Part shown: positions 57,204-64,000 of the stretch, one piece after another | Layout: each line of letters opens with the position of its first letter | Position numbering within the stretch: the first letter of the stretch is position 1 | DNA from: Streptomyces radicis | GTDB lineage: Bacteria > Actinomycetota > Actinomycetes > Streptomycetales > Streptomycetaceae | Assembly (NCBI RefSeq): GCF_003626575.1 | Contig: NZ_RBDY01000003.1 | Location: 186,001-250,000 of the forward strand | DNA length: 64,000 nucleotides | Direction: 5' to 3' | The notes under the pieces: generated by a model | Seen by the model: the letters and a program-made list of their open reading frames with translations, nothing else | The model's database searches: none | What the model was told of the DNA's origin: nothing | Position numbers and translations under genes: made by a program

Positions 57204-57235
57204 GCACCATCCGGTTCAGCAAGGGAGACATCATC

Positions 57236-57979
57236 ATGCCCATCTCACCCAACCAGGGGCCGTCCGGCGGTGGGACCTCGGTCATCATCACGGGGACCAA
57301 CCTGTCCAACGCCAGTGCCGTGCGCTTCGGCACCAAGCCGGCGACGATCACGGCCAACTCCCCCACGTCGGTCACCGTGGTGTCGCCCTCGGGCTCGGGC
57401 GTCGTCGACGTGCGGGTCACGACGCCGGGCGGCACCAGCAACCCGCTGCCCTTCTTCTACGTGCCGGCGCCCCTCAAGACGGGCGTCGACCCGCTCTCCG
57501 GGCCCACGGCCGGTGGCAACGTCGTCACCATCACCGGCACGGGGCTCACCACCGCGTCCTCGGTGAGCTTCGGCGCGTCGACGGCCGTCCCGACCGTCGT
57601 CAACGACGGCCAGCTCACCGTGGTGGTCCCCGCGGGAGCGGCGGCCGGGCCGGTGGGCGTGAGCGTCACGACGGCCGGTGGCGTCCACAACGGCGTCACC
57701 TATGTGTACGTGGACGGTCCGACGATCACGGACGTGGACCCCGCCTCGGGGCCCACCTCGGGCGGCACCGCGGTGACCATCACCGGGACCAGCCTGACCA
57801 CGACCGGGTCGGTCACGTTCGGCGGCAACGTGGCGCCGTTCACCGTGGTGTCCGACAGCACGGTGACGACGCTGACCCCGCCGGGGGCCGCGGGCGCGGT
57901 CGACGTCGTGCTCACCAACGACGGCGGCAGCGACACGGCGGTCGGCGCGTACACCTATGTCGCGGGGCCCGGCATCTGA
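57236..57979 (+). CDS. IPT/TIG-repeat protein, three domains
   Basis: 247 residues made of three tandem immunoglobulin-like IPT/TIG domains (about 1-78, 79-163, 164-247). Each has the GPSGGGTSVIITGTNL-type opening and a VTTPGGTSNPLPFFYV-type end. No signal peptide, no membrane segment, no other domain. Composition is rich in Thr, Val, Gly and almost without Lys or aromatic residues. AAGGGAG 9-14 nt before ATG. A second protein of the same make-up follows after 182 bp. TIG domains elsewhere mediate binding to DNA, proteins or surfaces; here the role is unknown. Confidence 0.85.
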   Translation: MPISPNQGPSGGGTSVIITGTNLSNASAVRFGTKPATITANSPTSVTVVSPSGSGVVDVRVTTPGGTSNPLPFFYVPAPLKTGVDPLSGPTAGGNVVTITGTGLTTASSVSFGASTAVPTVVNDGQLTVVVPAGAAAGPVGVSVTTAGGVHNGVTYVYVDGPTITDVDPASGPTSGGTAVTITGTSLTTTGSVTFGGNVAPFTVVSDSTVTTLTPPGAAGAVDVVLTNDGGSDTAVGAYTYVAGPGI

Positions 57980-58161
57980 CCGGTACCGGCGTCACGGCGA
58001 ACGCGTCCACCAGCGCACGCGTCGACCAGCGCACGCGTCCACGAGGGGCCGGGACACCCCGGCCCTCCGCCCCGGGCCCCGGCCGGGCGGTCCCGCACCG
58101 GCCGGGGCTCCTTCTCAAGTTCTCAAGGGAATCTTCTCAAGGGATCATCGAGGAACCCATC

Positions 58162-59217
58162 GTGAGCGAATCAGACAACCCGAATCCGCCCCCGCCCTCC
58201 GCACCCACCGTGACCTCCGTGTCGCCCTCGTCGGGCCCCGCCACCGGCGGGAACACCGCGCAGGTGCGCGGAACGGGATTCCAGGGCGTCACCGCCGTCC
58301 GCTTCGGCGGCCAGGCGTCCCCGGACTTCGACGTCACGTCGAGCACCCGGATCTCGGCCGTCGTGCCCGCCGGGACCGGGACCGTCCGGGTCACCGTGAC
58401 CACCCAGCGGGGGACCAGCACCCAGAACGTCACCTATCGCTATGTCACGGCGGACCTGCCGACCCTGACATCGGTCCAGCCGACGCGTGGGCCGGTAGCG
58501 GGCGGGAACGCCGTGACCCTCACCGGCACCGGGCTCGGCGGGGCGACCGCCGTCCTGTTCGGCACGGTCCCGGCGACGTCGTTCACCGTCCAGTCCGGCA
58601 CCCGGATCGTCGCGGTCGCCCCGCCCGGCCTTCCCGGCCCCGTCGAGATCACGGTGACCACGGCCGACGGCACCACCGACCCGGGGGTGCTCTACTTCTA
58701 CGCGGCGGAGCCGGTGTTGACCGCGCTCAGCCCGCCGTCGGGCCCCGTGGCGGGCGGCACCACCGTCACCCTGACGGGCACGGGCCTCCTGGGCACCACG
58801 GCCGTGACGTTCGGGTCGAGCCCGGCCACGTCGTTCGCCGTCGTCTCGGACACGCAGGTGACGGCGGTCGCGCCGCCGCGCGCGGCCGGGACCGTGCCGG
58901 TCACCGTGACGACCCCCTCGGGGACGAGCAACGGACTGGCGTACGTCTATGTGTCGGCGCCGCAGCTCACCGCGATCAGCCCCGCGTCCGGGCCCCTCGT
59001 GGGGGGCACGGTGGTGACGCTGACCGGGAGCGGCCTGACCGGGGTGACGACCGTGCTGTTCGGCGCGGTGCCCGCGGCGTTCACCGTGCTGTCCGACACC
59101 CATCTCACGGCCGTCGTGCCGCCCGGGCCCGCGGGGCCCGTGGCCGTCACGGTCGTCGCGTCGGGGGGCACGAGTCCGTCCGTGACCTTTACCCGGGTGC
59201 CGCCCCCCGAAATCTGA
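58162..59217 (+). CDS. IPT/TIG-repeat protein, four domains
   Basis: 351 residues: a 14-residue Pro/Ser-rich start, then four IPT/TIG domains (beginning near PTVTSVSPSSGPATGGN, PTLTSVQPTRGPVAGGN, PVLTALSPPSGPVAGGT and PQLTAISPASGPLVGGT). No signal peptide. GTG start with GAGGAA upstream. The gap before it contains three TTCTCAAG words (58112-58141) and a GC hairpin. Ends 30 bp before an intrinsic terminator, so the pair of IPT/TIG genes forms a transcription unit. Confidence 0.85.
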   Translation: MSESDNPNPPPPSAPTVTSVSPSSGPATGGNTAQVRGTGFQGVTAVRFGGQASPDFDVTSSTRISAVVPAGTGTVRVTVTTQRGTSTQNVTYRYVTADLPTLTSVQPTRGPVAGGNAVTLTGTGLGGATAVLFGTVPATSFTVQSGTRIVAVAPPGLPGPVEITVTTADGTTDPGVLYFYAAEPVLTALSPPSGPVAGGTTVTLTGTGLLGTTAVTFGSSPATSFAVVSDTQVTAVAPPRAAGTVPVTVTTPSGTSNGLAYVYVSAPQLTAISPASGPLVGGTVVTLTGSGLTGVTTVLFGAVPAAFTVLSDTHLTAVVPPGPAGPVAVTVVASGGTSPSVTFTRVPPPEI

Positions 59218-59246
59218 CGGGCGATTTCCTCTCCCGTCAATCGCAT

Positions 59247-59286
59247 TGAAGGCACGCCTCTGCCAAGAGGCGTGCCTTCATTTTTT
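59247..59286 (+). terminator. Intrinsic terminator after the IPT/TIG genes
   Basis: 15-bp perfect stem TGAAGGCACGCCTCT with complement, loop GCCA, then TTTTTT (59281-59286). A textbook rho-independent terminator, unusual in this GC-rich genome. Confidence 0.9.
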
Positions 59287-59404
59287 GTCCCCTGAATTCG
59301 CCCCATGCACCCTGTACCACCCCGCGATGAATCCACACCACCTTTCATGTTTCCTTCGCCGCACGTACGGTGGACGGGAAATAATTCATACGGAAGGAGC
59401 CGAC

Positions 59405-59608
59405 GTGACAACGATGGTGTTCCTCATCGGGGGACCGCTTGACCTACCGAGGTTATGGACGGCGCCTCAGGTGCGCGATCAGGAGAATCTGAAGATTCAG
59501 CATGGGAATGGATATGAGCATTTCAGCTTCGCCGAGGAGTACAGGGTGTTCCAGGGTTCGGCGCTTCCCGTGTACCGATGGCGCCGCCGCACATTCATCG
59601 CCGAATAG
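59405..59608 (+). CDS. Small DUF5988-like protein
   Basis: 67 residues: starts VTTMVFLIGGPLDLPRLW, has KIQHGNGYEHFSFAEEY in the middle, and ends LPVYRWRRRTFIAE. GGAAGGAG 6-13 nt before GTG. The GGP...L start, NGYEHF centre and YRW...RT.IAE end fit small actinobacterial proteins of the DUF5988 type as I remember them, which occur near biosynthetic genes. No catalytic motif. It lies between the terminator and the ketosynthase, 30 bp before the latter, so probably the first gene of the PKS operon. Confidence 0.7.
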   Translation: MTTMVFLIGGPLDLPRLWTAPQVRDQENLKIQHGNGYEHFSFAEEYRVFQGSALPVYRWRRRTFIAE

Positions 59609-59638
59609 CGGCGACCCATTCCCGGAAAAGGAGCAGCC

Positions 59639-60961
59639 ATGACCTCGACCGCCCAGGGCATGCAGGCGAGGGACGCGGTGGTCACCGGGCTGGGATTCTG
59701 CCTCCCTGGACCGACGGGGCCGACCTTCACCGCGGACGACGTGTGGCGCGTCGCCTCGCACGGGCAGACCGCCCTCCTCCAGGGAGAGGTGTACTTCGGG
59801 GCGGTGCGGCTCACCCCGGCGATGTTCGACGAGCGGCTGCCCGGCGTCCCGGCGTTCTTCTCCCGGCACTACACCCCCGTGCACCGCTACGGCCTGGTCT
59901 CGCTCGTCGAGGCGTGCGCCGACGCCAGGCTCGACATCGCGTCCGACGCGCTGGCCAGGGCCGCCGTGCTGGTCGGCCGCGGATCCGTCGACACCAACGT
60001 CGGCAGCTATCTCTCGGTCCTGCACGCCGACCCCCTGACCACCGAACCCGCCGAGGCCATGGAGATGTTCGTGGCCGCGCAGCAGGCGGTGACCCCCTCG
60101 GACGTCGCGCTGGTGCAGGCGGCCCTGACGCGCTCGGCCGGGCCAAGCTTCACGGTCTCCTGCGGATGCGCCTCGTCGGCCGTGCAGATCGCGAACGCGC
60201 GCCGCATGATCGCCTGGGGCGAGGTGGACGTCGCCCTCGTCACCGGCGTCGACGCGTTCAACGTCGACCTCATCGAGAACATCCAGCGCCTGCTGCGGGG
60301 CGCCCAGCACACCTACGACGACATCAGGTCGGACGGCATGCCCGACCTGCTGCCCTCCTTCCTCTCCCTCATGCGCCCCTACGACCGGCGCGCCGTCAGC
60401 ATCAACCACGGGGAGGGCTCGGCGACGCTCGTGCTGGAGAGCCGCGAGCACGCGGACCGCAGGGGCGCGCCCGCCTACGGGCAGGTCCTGGCGTGCGGCA
60501 TGACCAGGGACGGCCTGGCGAATCCGCTCGCGAGCGACGAGTCGGGGGCCGAGCTCGTCGCCGCCGTCCGCGCGTGCCTCGGGCGGCGCTGGAGCCCGGA
60601 CGAGATCCCCTATGTGCACGGCGGCAGCGACGGCAACACCACGGTGACCGCCTTCGAGGCCAACGCCATCACCGAGCTGTACGGCCCCGACTCCGGCGTC
60701 CTGATGACCTCGCAGGAGGGCTGCTTCGGCCACAACGGCGCGCCCGCGGGCTGCCTCGGGGTGGCGTTGACGCTGCTGATGATGGAGAACGGCGAGGTCT
60801 GTCCCACCGCGAACTGCGAACAGCCCGCCGATGGCCTGCCGTTCGACCCCGTGCCGGGGAGCCGGGCGCGACGGCTCGACTTCGACCGCGCGCTCACCCT
60901 CAACTACCAGGTCGGCGGGGTGAAGCACGCCATTCTCCTGGGCGGCCCCGACCCCGCGTGA
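59639..60961 (+). CDS. Atypical free-standing beta-ketoacyl synthase
   Basis: 440 residues, thiolase-fold KAS I/II type. Cys177 in VSCGCASSAVQIANAR is in the nucleophile position. The first His is in YVHGGSDGNTTVTAFEANAI, two residues longer than the usual HGTGT-x-x-GD-x-x-E block. The second His is in TSQEGCFGHNGAPAGCLG, but the conserved Lys four residues before GH is Glu. The protein is thus neither a normal condensing enzyme nor a Cys-less chain length factor. AAAAGGAG before ATG. It precedes the type I PKS by 62 bp. Possible roles: priming, decarboxylation, or acyl transfer. Confidence 0.82.
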   Translation: MTSTAQGMQARDAVVTGLGFCLPGPTGPTFTADDVWRVASHGQTALLQGEVYFGAVRLTPAMFDERLPGVPAFFSRHYTPVHRYGLVSLVEACADARLDIASDALARAAVLVGRGSVDTNVGSYLSVLHADPLTTEPAEAMEMFVAAQQAVTPSDVALVQAALTRSAGPSFTVSCGCASSAVQIANARRMIAWGEVDVALVTGVDAFNVDLIENIQRLLRGAQHTYDDIRSDGMPDLLPSFLSLMRPYDRRAVSINHGEGSATLVLESREHADRRGAPAYGQVLACGMTRDGLANPLASDESGAELVAAVRACLGRRWSPDEIPYVHGGSDGNTTVTAFEANAITELYGPDSGVLMTSQEGCFGHNGAPAGCLGVALTLLMMENGEVCPTANCEQPADGLPFDPVPGSRARRLDFDRALTLNYQVGGVKHAILLGGPDPA

Positions 60962-61023
60962 CGCCTCGGGCCGCCCGCCCCCGATGCCAGGAGCCCTGTG
61001 CAAGGAACAACGAGGAGGAATCC

Positions 61024-64000
61024 ATGGGGAAGCGGACAGACGCGCCGGTCGGCGGCGCGCCCCACGAGGCCATCGCGGTGATCGGCATGGGATGCCGACT
61101 GCCAGGCGACGTCGACTCCCCCGCCGCGCTCTGGCGGCTCATGGTGACGGGCCGCGACGCCGTGGGGCTCCCGCCGCCCGGGCGCGCGGACCTGTGGGAG
61201 GGGCACGCGCCGGGCTCGGGGCCCCCCGAGGGCGGCTATCTGCGGGACGTGTCGCGTTTCGACGCGGACTTCTTCGGGGTGTCGGGCCGCGAGGCGGACG
61301 TCCTCGACCCGCAGCACCGGCTGCTCCTCGAGGTCGCGTGGGAGGCGCTCGAACACGCGGGCGTCCCGCCGGAGTCGCTCGCCGGGACCCCGACCGGGGT
61401 GTTCACCGGCCTGAGCTACACCGACTACATGGACCGCCTCGCCGGGCGGCCCGAGGAGCTCGCGGGCTCGGTCCTCACCAACGGGCACGCCGTCGCACCG
61501 GGCCGGATCTCCTACCTGCTCGGGCTGCACGGCCCCTCGATCGCGCTCGACACCGCCTGCTCGTCGTCGCTCGTGGCGCTGCACCTGGCGGGCCACGCCC
61601 TGAACGCCGGGGAGTGCGACCTGGCGCTCGCCGGGGGCGTGAGCCTGGTGCTCCAGGCGCGCACCACCCGGTCGTTCGCACGGATGGGCATGCTGTCGGA
61701 CTCGGGCCGCTGCCGCACGTTCGACGCCGCCGCCGACGGCTTCGTCAGGGGCGAGGGGTGCGGTGTCGTCGTTCTCAAGCGCCATCGCGACGCCCTCGAC
61801 GACGGGGACCGGATCCTCGCCCTGGTCCGTGGCACGGCCCTCAACCAGGACGGCGCGTCCGAGGGCCTCGCGGCGCCCTCGGCAGCCGCGCAGCGCGCGG
61901 TGTACCGGGAGGCGCTGGCCCGCGCGGGCGTCGACCCGGGTGACGTGGGCATGGTGGAGACCCATGGCACGGGGACGCCGGTGGGCGACCCGGTCGAGTT
62001 CTCGGGGCTCGCCGAGGTCTACGGCACCGGCAGGGACCGCTGCGCCCTCACCTCGGTGAAGACGCATCTCGGGCATCTGGAGCCCGCCGCCGGGATCGTC
62101 GGGCTGCTGAAGGCCGTGAGCTGCCTGGTGCGCGAACGGATCCCCCCGAACCTCCACTTCCGCGCCTGGAACCCGGAGATCCACCCCGAGGGCACCCGCC
62201 TGTTCGTCCCCACGGAGCTGACGGAGTGGCCCGTGCGCGAGGGGCCGAGGCTGGCGGCCGTCTCGTCGTTCGGGTTCTCGGGGACCAACGCCCACGTGGT
62301 GCTCGAACGGGCCCCGGGCCAGGCGGCCGGGCCGCGCGTGCCGCGCCCCCGCACCGGCGTGGCCACCCCCGAGGCGTTCCTGGTCGCCGCCGGGTCGGCC
62401 GCCGCGCTGCCCGCCGCGGCCGAGCGCCTGGCCGACTGGCTGGAGACGGACGAGGGCGCCGACGTGCCGCTGGGCGACCTGGCGCACACGCTGGCCCTGC
62501 GCCGCGGCGCGGGGCGCGGGCGGCTCGGCGTGCTCGCCGCGTCGCGGGATCAACTCCTGGGCGGGCTGCGGTCGTTCGCCAGGGGCGAGCCGCGCCCCCG
62601 CACCGTGGTCGGCTCCGTGGCCGCCGGTGTGGCGCGGCGGCCCGTGTGGGTGTTCTCGGGCCAGGGCTCGCAGTGGCCTGGGATGGGGCGGGGGCTGCTC
62701 GCGGCGGAGCCCGCGTTCCGGGCGGCGCTCGCGGAGGTCGATCCGCTGATCGCCGCCGAGGCGGGCTTCTCGGTCCTGGACGTCGTGCGCGACGGCGCCC
62801 CGGTGACCGGGTGCGCGCGGGTCCAGCCGGTGCTGTTCGCCGTTCAGCTGGGCCTTGCCGCCGTGTGGCGCTCCCACGGGGTGGATCCCGCCGCCGTGAT
62901 CGGGCACTCGATGGGCGAGGTGGCCGCGGCGGTGGTGTGCGGCGCCCTGTCGCCCGCCGACGGCGTCCGCGTCATCTGCCGCAGGTCCGCGCTGCTGGAC
63001 CGCATCGCGGGGGCGGGCGCCATGGCGTCGGTGTCGCTGCCCGCGGACGCCGTGGAGGCCGAGCTCTCGGGGCGCGCCGTCTCGGTCGCGGTGCTCAGCG
63101 CGCCCGGCACCACGGTGGTGTCGGGCGACGCCGCGGAGGTCGAGCGGCTGGTGGAGGGCTGGGCGGCGCGGGGCGTCCCGGCCGCGGGGATCGCGGTGGA
63201 CGTCGCGTCCCACTCGCCCCACGTGGATCCGCTGCTGCCCGATCTACGCGCGGCGCTCGCCGAGTTGCGCCCCGGGCCGCCCCTGGTCCCCTTCTACTCG
63301 ACGGTGTCGGAGACGACGCGGGCGACGCCGGTCCTGGACGCCGCCTACTGGTGCGCGAACCTGCGGCGCCCGGTCCGTTTCACGGCGGCGCTGGCCGCCG
63401 CCGCGGCGGACCGGCATCCGGTGTTCGTCGAGGTCTCGCCGCACCCGGTGGTCGCGCCCGCCGTCGTCCAGTCCCTGGCCGGGCTGATCGACGACCCGGT
63501 GGTGCTGCCCACGCTCCGCAGGGGCGAGGACGAGCCGGCGACGCTGCTCGAGCAGCTGACGGCGCTGCACTGCGCGGGGACCGCGGTCGACTGGTCGCGG
63601 CGCCACGCGGGCGGCGCCCTCGTCGACGCGCCCCCCATGACGTTCGACCGCAGGCGCCACTGGGCGGCGCCGACAGGCCCGGTCGGCCCGGTCGGCCCGG
63701 GGACCGCGGCCACGCCCGCGCGGGCGCCCGCGGAACGGACCCCGCCGGGCGACCGCACGGAGGCGCCGGGCGACCCGGTGCGCCACGTGTGGCGGGCCGA
63801 CCTCGGGACCGCGGCCCAGCCGTGGCTCGCCGACCACCAGGTCTACGGGGCCCCGGCGCTCCCCGGCGCGTTCTCCGGCGCGCTCGCGCTGACGTGCGCC
63901 CACGAGGTGCTCGGGGGCGCCCTCGGCGAGATCGAGGTCTCCGACCTCCGCTTCGAGGAGCTCCAGCCGCTCGGCGGGCGCGCGGTGGTGAGCACGGTGG
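61024..64000 (+). CDS. Type I polyketide synthase, KS-AT-DH..., truncated by window end
   Basis: At least 992 residues; continues past the window. KS (about 13-435): Cys179 in DTACSSSLVAL, His314 in ETHGTGTPVGD, Lys and His351 in SVKTHLGHLEPAAG, all intact. AT (about 540-840): Ser629 in GHSMGEVAAAV and the specificity motif VASH (residues 727-730) in VDVASHSPHVDP, resembling methylmalonyl-type and mycocerosic-acid-synthase ATs. DH begins near residue 915 with His938 in WLADHQVYGAPALPG (HxxxGxxxxP). No docking domain or carrier protein precedes KS, so it is probably an iterative, reducing synthase. GAGGAGGAA before ATG. Confidence 0.93.
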   Translation, partial: MGKRTDAPVGGAPHEAIAVIGMGCRLPGDVDSPAALWRLMVTGRDAVGLPPPGRADLWEGHAPGSGPPEGGYLRDVSRFDADFFGVSGREADVLDPQHRLLLEVAWEALEHAGVPPESLAGTPTGVFTGLSYTDYMDRLAGRPEELAGSVLTNGHAVAPGRISYLLGLHGPSIALDTACSSSLVALHLAGHALNAGECDLALAGGVSLVLQARTTRSFARMGMLSDSGRCRTFDAAADGFVRGEGCGVVVLKRHRDALDDGDRILALVRGTALNQDGASEGLAAPSAAAQRAVYREALARAGVDPGDVGMVETHGTGTPVGDPVEFSGLAEVYGTGRDRCALTSVKTHLGHLEPAAGIVGLLKAVSCLVRERIPPNLHFRAWNPEIHPEGTRLFVPTELTEWPVREGPRLAAVSSFGFSGTNAHVVLERAPGQAAGPRVPRPRTGVATPEAFLVAAGSAAALPAAAERLADWLETDEGADVPLGDLAHTLALRRGAGRGRLGVLAASRDQLLGGLRSFARGEPRPRTVVGSVAAGVARRPVWVFSGQGSQWPGMGRGLLAAEPAFRAALAEVDPLIAAEAGFSVLDVVRDGAPVTGCARVQPVLFAVQLGLAAVWRSHGVDPAAVIGHSMGEVAAAVVCGALSPADGVRVICRRSALLDRIAGAGAMASVSLPADAVEAELSGRAVSVAVLSAPGTTVVSGDAAEVERLVEGWAARGVPAAGIAVDVASHSPHVDPLLPDLRAALAELRPGPPLVPFYSTVSETTRATPVLDAAYWCANLRRPVRFTAALAAAAADRHPVFVEVSPHPVVAPAVVQSLAGLIDDPVVLPTLRRGEDEPATLLEQLTALHCAGTAVDWSRRHAGGALVDAPPMTFDRRRHWAAPTGPVGPVGPGTAATPARAPAERTPPGDRTEAPGDPVRHVWRADLGTAAQPWLADHQVYGAPALPGAFSGALALTCAHEVLGGALGEIEVSDLRFEELQPLGGRAVVSTV

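What the first reader, a model, noticed from the sequence alone, without database searches (positions are those of the whole stretch)
57236..64000. Possible uncharacterised PKS locus preceded by two cytosolic IPT/TIG-repeat proteins
Two neighbouring genes encode proteins that consist solely of three and four IPT/TIG domains without export signals. They are followed by a small DUF5988-like protein, an unusual ketosynthase and a KS-AT-DH synthase, all on one strand. I know of no described biosynthetic system that uses bare IPT/TIG proteins. They could be scaffolds, surface proteins exported by a non-Sec route, or unrelated neighbours; the terminator at 59247 separates them from the PKS genes.
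Basis: partly seen in the sequence, partly recalled or inferred. Interest (0 to 1): 0.75.

Follow-up and report, generated by a model that had tools for sequence, protein, structure and literature searches.

The report
Polyketide synthase paired with Ig-repeat proteins
A Streptomyces gene set, found on chromosomes and on linear plasmids, places a polyketide synthase predicted to make fatty-acid-like chains beside proteins made only of immunoglobulin-like repeats without export signals, and together they likely build a lipid-bearing surface fibre.

Summary
Confirmed and enlarged. The window holds two leaderless IPT/TIG proteins (three and four domains), a terminator, DUF5988, an odd ketosynthase and a PKS that beyond the window reads KS-AT-DH-ER-KR-ACP (mycocerosic-acid-synthase-like, no thioesterase). 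The lone KS keeps Cys and the second His, but the first His and the Lys are replaced in 49 of 49 close orthologues. The neighbours are not accidental: a TIG gene lies within 6 kb of this KS-PKS in 15 of 32 genus loci and 14 of 18 loci of a family sample, and 21 of 22 plasmid records with the KS carry TIG genes. Adjacent beta-helix partners go with TIG2 of 5-13 domains (14 of 14), Ig-like partners with exactly four (16 of 16). Best reading: a mobile surface module of TIG stalk, secreted partner and predicted methyl-branched acyl chain. The association is shown; export, assembly and the lipid link are inferred. Boldest open reading: TIG1 polymerises head to tail through a split strand.

The parts
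57221..57227 (+). ribosome-binding site (AAGGGAG) of TIG1, 8 bases before ATG
   Evidence: sequence; similar purine-rich sites at this place in the orthologues printed
57236..57979 (+). TIG1, 247 aa, three IPT/TIG domains, no signal peptide; conserved ends MPISPN / AGPGI
58162..59217 (+). TIG2, 351 aa (GTG start, GAGGA upstream), four IPT/TIG domains, ends RVPPPEI
59247..59280 (+). intrinsic terminator, 15-pair stem + T run, between the TIG pair and the KS-PKS genes
59405..59608 (+). DUF5988 protein (PF19450), 67 aa; DUF5988 found in 22 of 32, 17 of 18 and 22 of 24 KS loci of the three sets
59639..60961 (+). stand-alone KAS-II-like ketosynthase, 440 aa; Cys and second His kept, first His -> G, Lys -> E; predicted acyltransferase rather than condensing enzyme
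61024..64000 (+). 5' part of the MAS-like type I PKS; full gene ends at C3:253497 (window-equivalent 67497), KS-AT-DH-ER-KR-ACP, no TE domain matched

Best explanation
The locus combines leaderless proteins built only of IPT/TIG repeats with a MAS-like iterative polyketide synthase and a ketosynthase that lacks two usual catalytic residues, a gene set that recurs on streptomycete chromosomes and linear plasmids and likely makes an acyl-modified surface fibre. Shown: gene content, recurrence, plasmid carriage, near-constant size and conserved ends of TIG1, variable repeat number of TIG2, pairing of each TIG2 type with one kind of neighbouring partner, and the changed KS active site. Predicted from families: the partners are secreted; the PKS extends a starter several times with methylmalonyl-CoA and fully reduces it (AT closest to MAS, same DVASHSP motif); as no thioesterase was matched, the KS-like protein would take the chain off the carrier protein and hand it to an acceptor. 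Inferred: TIG1 and TIG2 form a stalk, the beta-helix or Ig-like protein acts as its head or anchor, and the lipid coats or anchors it; the fibre would serve adhesion or hypha-hypha contact that favours the plasmid. How leaderless TIG proteins leave the cell (a non-Sec route or lysis) is not known.
For: Association: KS in 32 and TIG1 in 48 of 392 genus genomes, both in 23 (23 of 32 with KS against 25 of 360 without; Fisher 5e-17, not corrected for phylogeny). TIG gene within 6 kb of KS-PKS in 15 of 32 loci, in several gene orders, 8 of the 15 on contigs of 7.9-8.7 Mb. Family sample: 14 of 18 within 6 kb, one more at about 6.2 kb; TIG1 in 14 of these 18 genomes against 19 of 181 without KS. Named set: 17 of 24 in the held flanks, two of the 24 cut close to the KS. 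Plasmids: 19 of 22 KS records have TIG1, 15 of them within 10 kb; two more have other TIG genes beside the KS; at least 314 Streptomyces plasmid records exist in the collection and 37 records of any genus match TIG1 at E <= 1e-6. Control: loci of more distant KS genes (39-51% identity), TIG in 0 of 6. Surface: partner beside 30 of 41 TIG pairs, split by TIG2 length; TIG1/TIG2 have 5.7/6.3% charged residues against a mean of 22.2%; nearest solved folds are plexin IPT repeats. Beta-helix protein: signal-like N-terminus and beta-helix model. Chemistry.
Against: TIG1 is mostly away from the KS (44 of 50 copies have no KS within 10 kb), and 17 of 32 genus KS loci show no TIG gene within 6 kb, among them three with a conserved neighbourhood without TIG (L102, L103, L105). 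The window's own pair does not follow the partner rule: TIG2 has four domains and its beta-helix gene lies beyond the PKS; G058 (L082) is the same. The terminator at 59247 splits the two units, and orientations vary. No export signal or route was found for the TIG proteins. I noted no starter-activating ligase or obvious acceptor among the called ORFs of L021, though not every ORF was run against profiles. The samples share relatives, so the p-values overstate independence.
Confidence: 0.32

Rival explanations
1. Co-cargo: the TIG genes and the KS-PKS are two independent accessory traits favoured by the same linear plasmids and chromosome arms; they lie together because both ride there, with no shared function.
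For: Both occur on streptomycete linear plasmids; gene order and orientation vary; 25 of the 48 genus genomes with TIG1 lack the KS; the terminator separates the units.
Against: 21 of 22 KS plasmid records, but only 37 records of any genus, match TIG1; the pairing holds with two kinds of neighbouring replication gene (primase/P4 type; DnaB type) and on chromosome-sized contigs; in 11 of 18 family-sample loci a one- or two-domain TIG gene lies divergently within 1.5 kb upstream of DUF5988.
Confidence: 0.36
2. Metabolite locus with cytosolic TIG scaffolds: the PKS makes a diffusible lipid-like metabolite or signal, and the TIG proteins stay inside as scaffold or protection.
For: No export signal on TIG1/TIG2; regulator-like genes near many loci (HATPase family in 20 and NsdA family in 13 of 32 genus loci).
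Against: TIG pairs mostly occur without this KS and often beside predicted secreted partners; their composition is unlike that of other ORFs called in these loci.
Confidence: 0.14
3. The TIG proteins are virion or contractile-injection parts of a phage-plasmid; lack of a leader is then natural.
For: Leaderless Ig-fold repeats; P4-family primase near several copies.
Against: No TIG1 match at E <= 1e-5 in 50,697 phage records and no confirmed relative in IMG/VR; no capsid, tail or packaging gene is annotated in the plasmid stretches read.
Confidence: 0.04
4. Chance neighbours in this one genome.
For: The genome is rich in PKS genes.
Against: The association recurs in two genome samples and in plasmids.
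Confidence: 0.02

Closest known systems
Mycocerosic acid synthase (MAS) / Pks2-type iterative PKS of mycobacteria
   Same: KS-AT-DH-ER-KR-ACP on one chain, no thioesterase matched; AT closest to MAS among solved structures and with the same DVASHSP motif; NCBIfam Pks2 is the best model
   Different: below the Pks2 cut-off (1735 against 2400 bits); partnered by a changed KS and DUF5988; I noted no PapA-type transferase or acyl-AMP ligase among neighbouring ORFs (not scanned by profile for all)
Type I PKS cluster 1P of the Streptomyces rimosus giant linear plasmid (PMC9045324, section 10 read)
   Same: stand-alone KS-AT-DH-ER-KR-carrier PKS described as MAS-like, on a linear plasmid
   Different: the paper lists five hypothetical proteins, two regulators and a P450, and a term search of its main text found no TIG; whether it is the same family was not tested
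Fibrillar adhesins with TIG stalk domains (PMC9210967, passages read)
   Same: tandem TIG repeats as a stalk
   Different: here stalk and possible head are separate proteins and the stalk proteins have no signal peptide or anchor
Non-elongating ketosynthases (KS0, recalled) and the ketosynthase-like acyltransferase subunit AmcF
   Same: Cys and one His kept, elongation residues lost (KS0, recalled); weak match to NCBIfam AmcF (82 bits, cut-off 325)
   Different: stand-alone, different family, partner PKS fully reducing
Chaperone-usher pili (donor-strand exchange; recalled)
   Same: an Ig-like subunit with an incomplete strand and a free terminal segment that could complete it
   Different: no homology claimed, no chaperone or usher seen, fold is TIG; no assembly shown

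Membership tests
MAS-like iterative type I PKS | KS-AT-DH-ER-KR-ACP on one polypeptide without TE | tested here: met
MAS-like iterative type I PKS | AT specific for methylmalonyl-CoA | tested here: inconclusive
   best solved hit MAS with DVASHSP shared; no biochemistry; MAS specificity recalled
MAS-like iterative type I PKS | score above a curated MAS/Pks2 equivalog cut-off | tested here: not met
   Pks2 model 1735 bits, cut-off 2400
Elongating KAS-II ketosynthase (FabF) | Cys-His-His triad with Lys | tested here: not met
   first His position G (39), A (9) or S (1) and Lys -> E in 49 of 49 close orthologues; Cys and second His kept in 49 of 49
Fibrillar adhesin | tandem stalk domains | tested here: met
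   3 and 4 TIG domains; TIG2 4-13 domains in relatives
Fibrillar adhesin | signal peptide | tested here: not met
   TIG1; TIG2: first domain 6-8 codons after a stop in five of 48 relatives
Fibrillar adhesin | surface anchor and adhesive domain in the same chain | tested here: not met
   only TIG-type domains matched
Phage virion / injection system component | homologues in phage genomes | tested here: not met
Donor-strand type fibre | first domain lacks a strand that a terminal segment could supply | tested here: inconclusive
   AF2: strand A 80-85 and 163-168 in domains 2 and 3, only 3-4 in domain 1; tail 243-247 unpaired; register matches
Donor-strand type fibre | observed polymer | not testable with these tools
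   needs purified protein and EM

The most novel reading that the evidence does not exclude
TIG1 is the subunit of a new, leaderless, self-assembling fibre. Its chain is cut inside the repeat: domain 1 lacks the front half of strand A and the conserved C-terminus (P-G-I) carries it, so tail plus head restores the internal repeat junction in exact register; TIG2, which mostly ends in P-x-I as well, sets stalk length. Linear plasmids carry the fibre with its own lipid synthase, and the KS-like acyltransferase attaches the methyl-branched chain, giving a plasmid-encoded, lipid-coated mating or dispersal fibre.
Probability: 0.12. Interest if true: 0.88.

Novelty: new variant of a known kind. Interest (0 to 1): 0.62.

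Why it matters
Orphan PKS loci are usually read as antibiotic clusters. This one recurs with repeat proteins of a surface-protein kind and is also carried on linear plasmids, often beside replication genes, which points to plasmid or cell-surface biology instead. It gives a concrete, testable set of genes for how streptomycete linear plasmids may shape the hyphal surface, a possible new fibre-forming principle for leaderless Ig-fold proteins, and a KS-like enzyme whose acceptor can be looked for.

Tried and rejected
Rejected: chance neighbours (recurrence); phage or injection origin; a hidden signal peptide on TIG1 (stop 4-5 codons upstream in three relatives); elongating KS. Read-outs that led nowhere: BHLX-B matched no NCBIfam or Pfam family; promoter scan found none; the S. 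nigrescens SNP1 stretch has no annotation. Secretion of the partner proteins was judged by eye from their N-termini, no signal-peptide program being on hand. Literature: no paper for 'IPT TIG domain' + Streptomyces or DUF5988; with 'IPT TIG', linear plasmid and Streptomyces none of the ten listed of 335 holds the first term; some searches gave the two papers named next or nothing I used. Papers: PMC9210967, passages by term; PMC9045324, passages by term and section 10 in full; the rest only as search listings. Not done: phylogenetic correction of the co-occurrence test; a check that the S. rimosus 1P PKS is this PKS; reading of all 22 KS plasmids (annotation around the KS read in 10 of 22; an eleventh is unannotated). 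Partner and TIG2 counts rest on loci I chose to fetch, mostly the best matches, not on all copies. Small slips: the Fisher table sums to 200 instead of 199 genomes; the de-replicated plasmid test assumes about 300 plasmids and is not relied on; one search stopped on a missing import after printing the counts used here, and its second half was redone.
Full report
What is there. The window (C3:186001-250000 of a 7.57-Mb, 81-contig genome) ends inside the locus. In order on the + strand: TIG1 (57236-57979, 247 aa, three PF01833 domains), TIG2 (58162-59217, 351 aa, four domains), a terminator (59247-59280), DUF5988 (59405-59608), a 440-aa ketosynthase (59639-60961) and a type I PKS from 61024. Beyond the window the PKS ends after 2157 aa as KS-AT-DH-ER-KR-ACP; then come a 299-aa protein and, on the other strand, an NsdA-family regulator. 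The 299-aa protein (BHLX-B) has a signal-like N-terminus and a confident beta-helix model (pLDDT 93); its best structural matches are rhombotarget A and alginate epimerases.

The TIG proteins. The genome has 20 TIG matches in three loci: the finding and two more pairs on contig C25. TIG1 is a defined family, mostly 247-250 aa, starting MPISPNQG. In 30 aligned members M1, P2, I3, P5, N6 and A243, P245, G246, I247 are invariant; in 45 members from the loci, 42 end in P-G-I. The protein search found 1334 proteins at E <= 1e-20 among the 7990 candidates scored; names among the 120 listed include Streptomyces, Nocardia, Kitasatospora, Actinacidiphila and Actinocatenispora. In 48 starts examined, three have a stop 4-5 codons upstream, so a leader has no room there. 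TIG2 varies from 4 to 13 domains (28 of 48 have four); 42 of 48 end in P-x-I/V, as do 45 of 46 TIG1. Other TIG proteins, among them the lone two- or three-domain ones next to the KS, mostly lack that ending (3 of 30 have it).

Partners of the TIG pair. In 47 distinct TIG1 loci scanned, 41 have a TIG2 within 1 kb, and 30 of the 41 have one of two predicted secreted proteins within 1.5 kb: a beta-helix protein (14, always with TIG2 of five or more domains) or a small Big_3_5 Ig-like protein (16, always with TIG2 of exactly four); 11 have neither (Pfam). The window's locus and G058 fall among the 11: TIG2 has four domains and the beta-helix gene sits after the PKS, outside the limit. The pairing is the best evidence that TIG proteins work with secreted proteins. 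Composition agrees: 5.7 and 6.3% charged residues against a mean of 22.2% (sd 4.4) for 303 larger ORFs of these loci.

The ketosynthase and the PKS. Against FabF the stand-alone KS keeps the nucleophilic Cys and the second His, but the first His position is G, A or S and the Lys is E; this holds in 49 of 49 close orthologues. By known KS chemistry (recalled) such an enzyme should not decarboxylate and condense; acyl transfer is the likely remaining activity. In the PKS the KS triad and the AT, DH, KR and ACP motifs are present, and ER domains are matched. Its AT is closest to mycocerosic acid synthase among solved structures and shares DVASHSP, so methylmalonyl extension and a methyl-branched saturated chain are predicted. 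No thioesterase was matched.

Association tests. Genus sample: KS (E <= 1e-150) in 32 of 392 genomes, TIG1 (E <= 1e-50) in 48, both in 23. A TIG gene lies within 6 kb of the KS-PKS operon in 15 of 32 loci, in varied arrangements: pair upstream on the same strand (G000, G058), lone TIG upstream (for example G064, G294, G348, G390), pair downstream (G047, G184, G003), divergent pair upstream (G217), four-domain gene on the other strand (G327). The 17 without include loci with little flank held on one side (for example L171, L104) and three with one conserved neighbourhood (L102, L103, L105). Family sample (200 Streptomycetaceae genomes, partly the same KS-less genomes as before): 14 of 18 new KS loci within 6 kb, one more at about 6.2 kb, three with no TIG in the held sequence (L261, L263, L271). 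Named genomes: 17 of 24 within the held flank; L201 and L221 are cut near the KS. The three sets overlap: contig lengths show that L254, L255 and L257 are L198, L200 and L206, and that L088, L087, L166 and L175 are L212, L220, L209 and L215. Control: six loci with more distant KS genes have no TIG. L200 (Streptantibioticus ferralitis) shows the complete set on one strand: BHLX, TIG1, TIG2, DUF5988, KS, PKS, BHLX, HATPase, with NsdA opposite.

Results against. TIG1 is mostly elsewhere: of 50 copies matched over residues 1-247 at 58% identity or more, 6 have the KS within 10 kb (for KS places). Gene order is not fixed, and a terminator separates the units. Relatedness was not corrected for. DUF5988 is not exclusive to this locus: the genome has a second copy on contig C11.

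Plasmids. Of 72,556 plasmid records, 22 have the KS and 24 TIG1 (E <= 1e-30), 19 both. TIG1 lies within 10 kb of the KS in 15 of these 19, about 21 kb away in one, and some 270 kb away in three S. atratus records; the one S. atratus record read has other TIG genes beside its KS. Two of the three KS records without TIG1 have other TIG genes beside the KS; the third has a PKS interrupted by a transposase gene and no TIG in the 32 kb read. At E <= 1e-6, 37 plasmid records match TIG1, including 21 of the 22, while a primase/polymerase of these plasmids rings in 324 records, 314 of them Streptomyces. The 22 include near-relatives (seven S. goshikiensis/Mg1, three S. scopuliridis, three S. atratus). 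In 10 annotated stretches read around the KS, 8 contain replication genes (primase/polymerase or P4-family primase; DnaB-like helicase); not K. cathayae nor CP107961. Nine of these ten records are linear; K. cathayae's is circular.

Mechanism. I commit to a surface module: TIG stalk, secreted partner, lipid from the PKS, KS-like protein as transferase. The stalk and its surface position are inferred from partners, composition and fold; the lipid from the families; the physical link between lipid and fibre is a guess. A sharper idea comes from the ends of TIG1: internal junctions run 15 residues from the conserved Tyr to the conserved Gly in 74 of 89 cases counted by a crude pattern, and tail (7) plus head (8) make 15 in 44 of 45 proteins. 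The AF2 model (pLDDT 93) gives domains 2 and 3 a six-residue strand A (80-85, 163-168) but domain 1 only residues 3-4, and leaves 243-247 unpaired with lower confidence. Head-to-tail completion of strand A would follow. Repeat proteins cut near a domain border are roughly in phase anyway, so this is suggestive only.

Novelty. Searches of the held library found no paper joining 'IPT TIG domain' and Streptomyces or naming DUF5988, and none of the ten listed for 'IPT TIG' with linear plasmid and Streptomyces held the first term. The nearest print seen is the MAS-like PKS on the S. rimosus linear plasmid (PMC9045324), with no mention of TIG in its main text. PKS and TIG repeats are known kinds; their recurrent partnership, also on plasmids, is what appears new.

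Noticed in passing
L023:11452-15379 (G000 C25): A second TIG1-TIG2 pair of the same genome is followed by two genes on the same strand with weak NodS-like and DUF1796 (papain-like) matches; a third pair lies at L025:9900-11832.
   Followed up: partly
L234:15766-23592 (NZ_CP107961.1): The PKS of this plasmid is split by an IS4-family transposase gene; of the 22 KS plasmid records it is the one without a TIG1-like match.
   Followed up: no
L098:9800-11308, L083:11483-14173, L179: Proteins that look by eye like YVTN beta-propellers with TIG domains occur near some TIG pairs; two of them end in the same P-x-I tail.
   Followed up: no
L106-L111: More distant relatives of the stand-alone KS (39-51% identity) sit in a different conserved cluster and share the missing first His and Lys -> Glu.
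   Followed up: partly
L218:10004-11295 and L216:11551-18142: KS of S. gelaticus and PKS of Streptomyces sp. I6 are found in several pieces, by sequencing error or decay.
   Followed up: no
L088:17951-18358, L226:9086-9490, L229:8127-8534, L231:32632-33108: A small gene, in L088 with a signal-like start, precedes DUF5988 in several copies and may be another part of the set; homology between these genes was not tested.
   Followed up: no
G000:C11:93043-93243 (L222): A second DUF5988 gene of the genome lies on contig C11, which holds many PKS genes.
   Followed up: no
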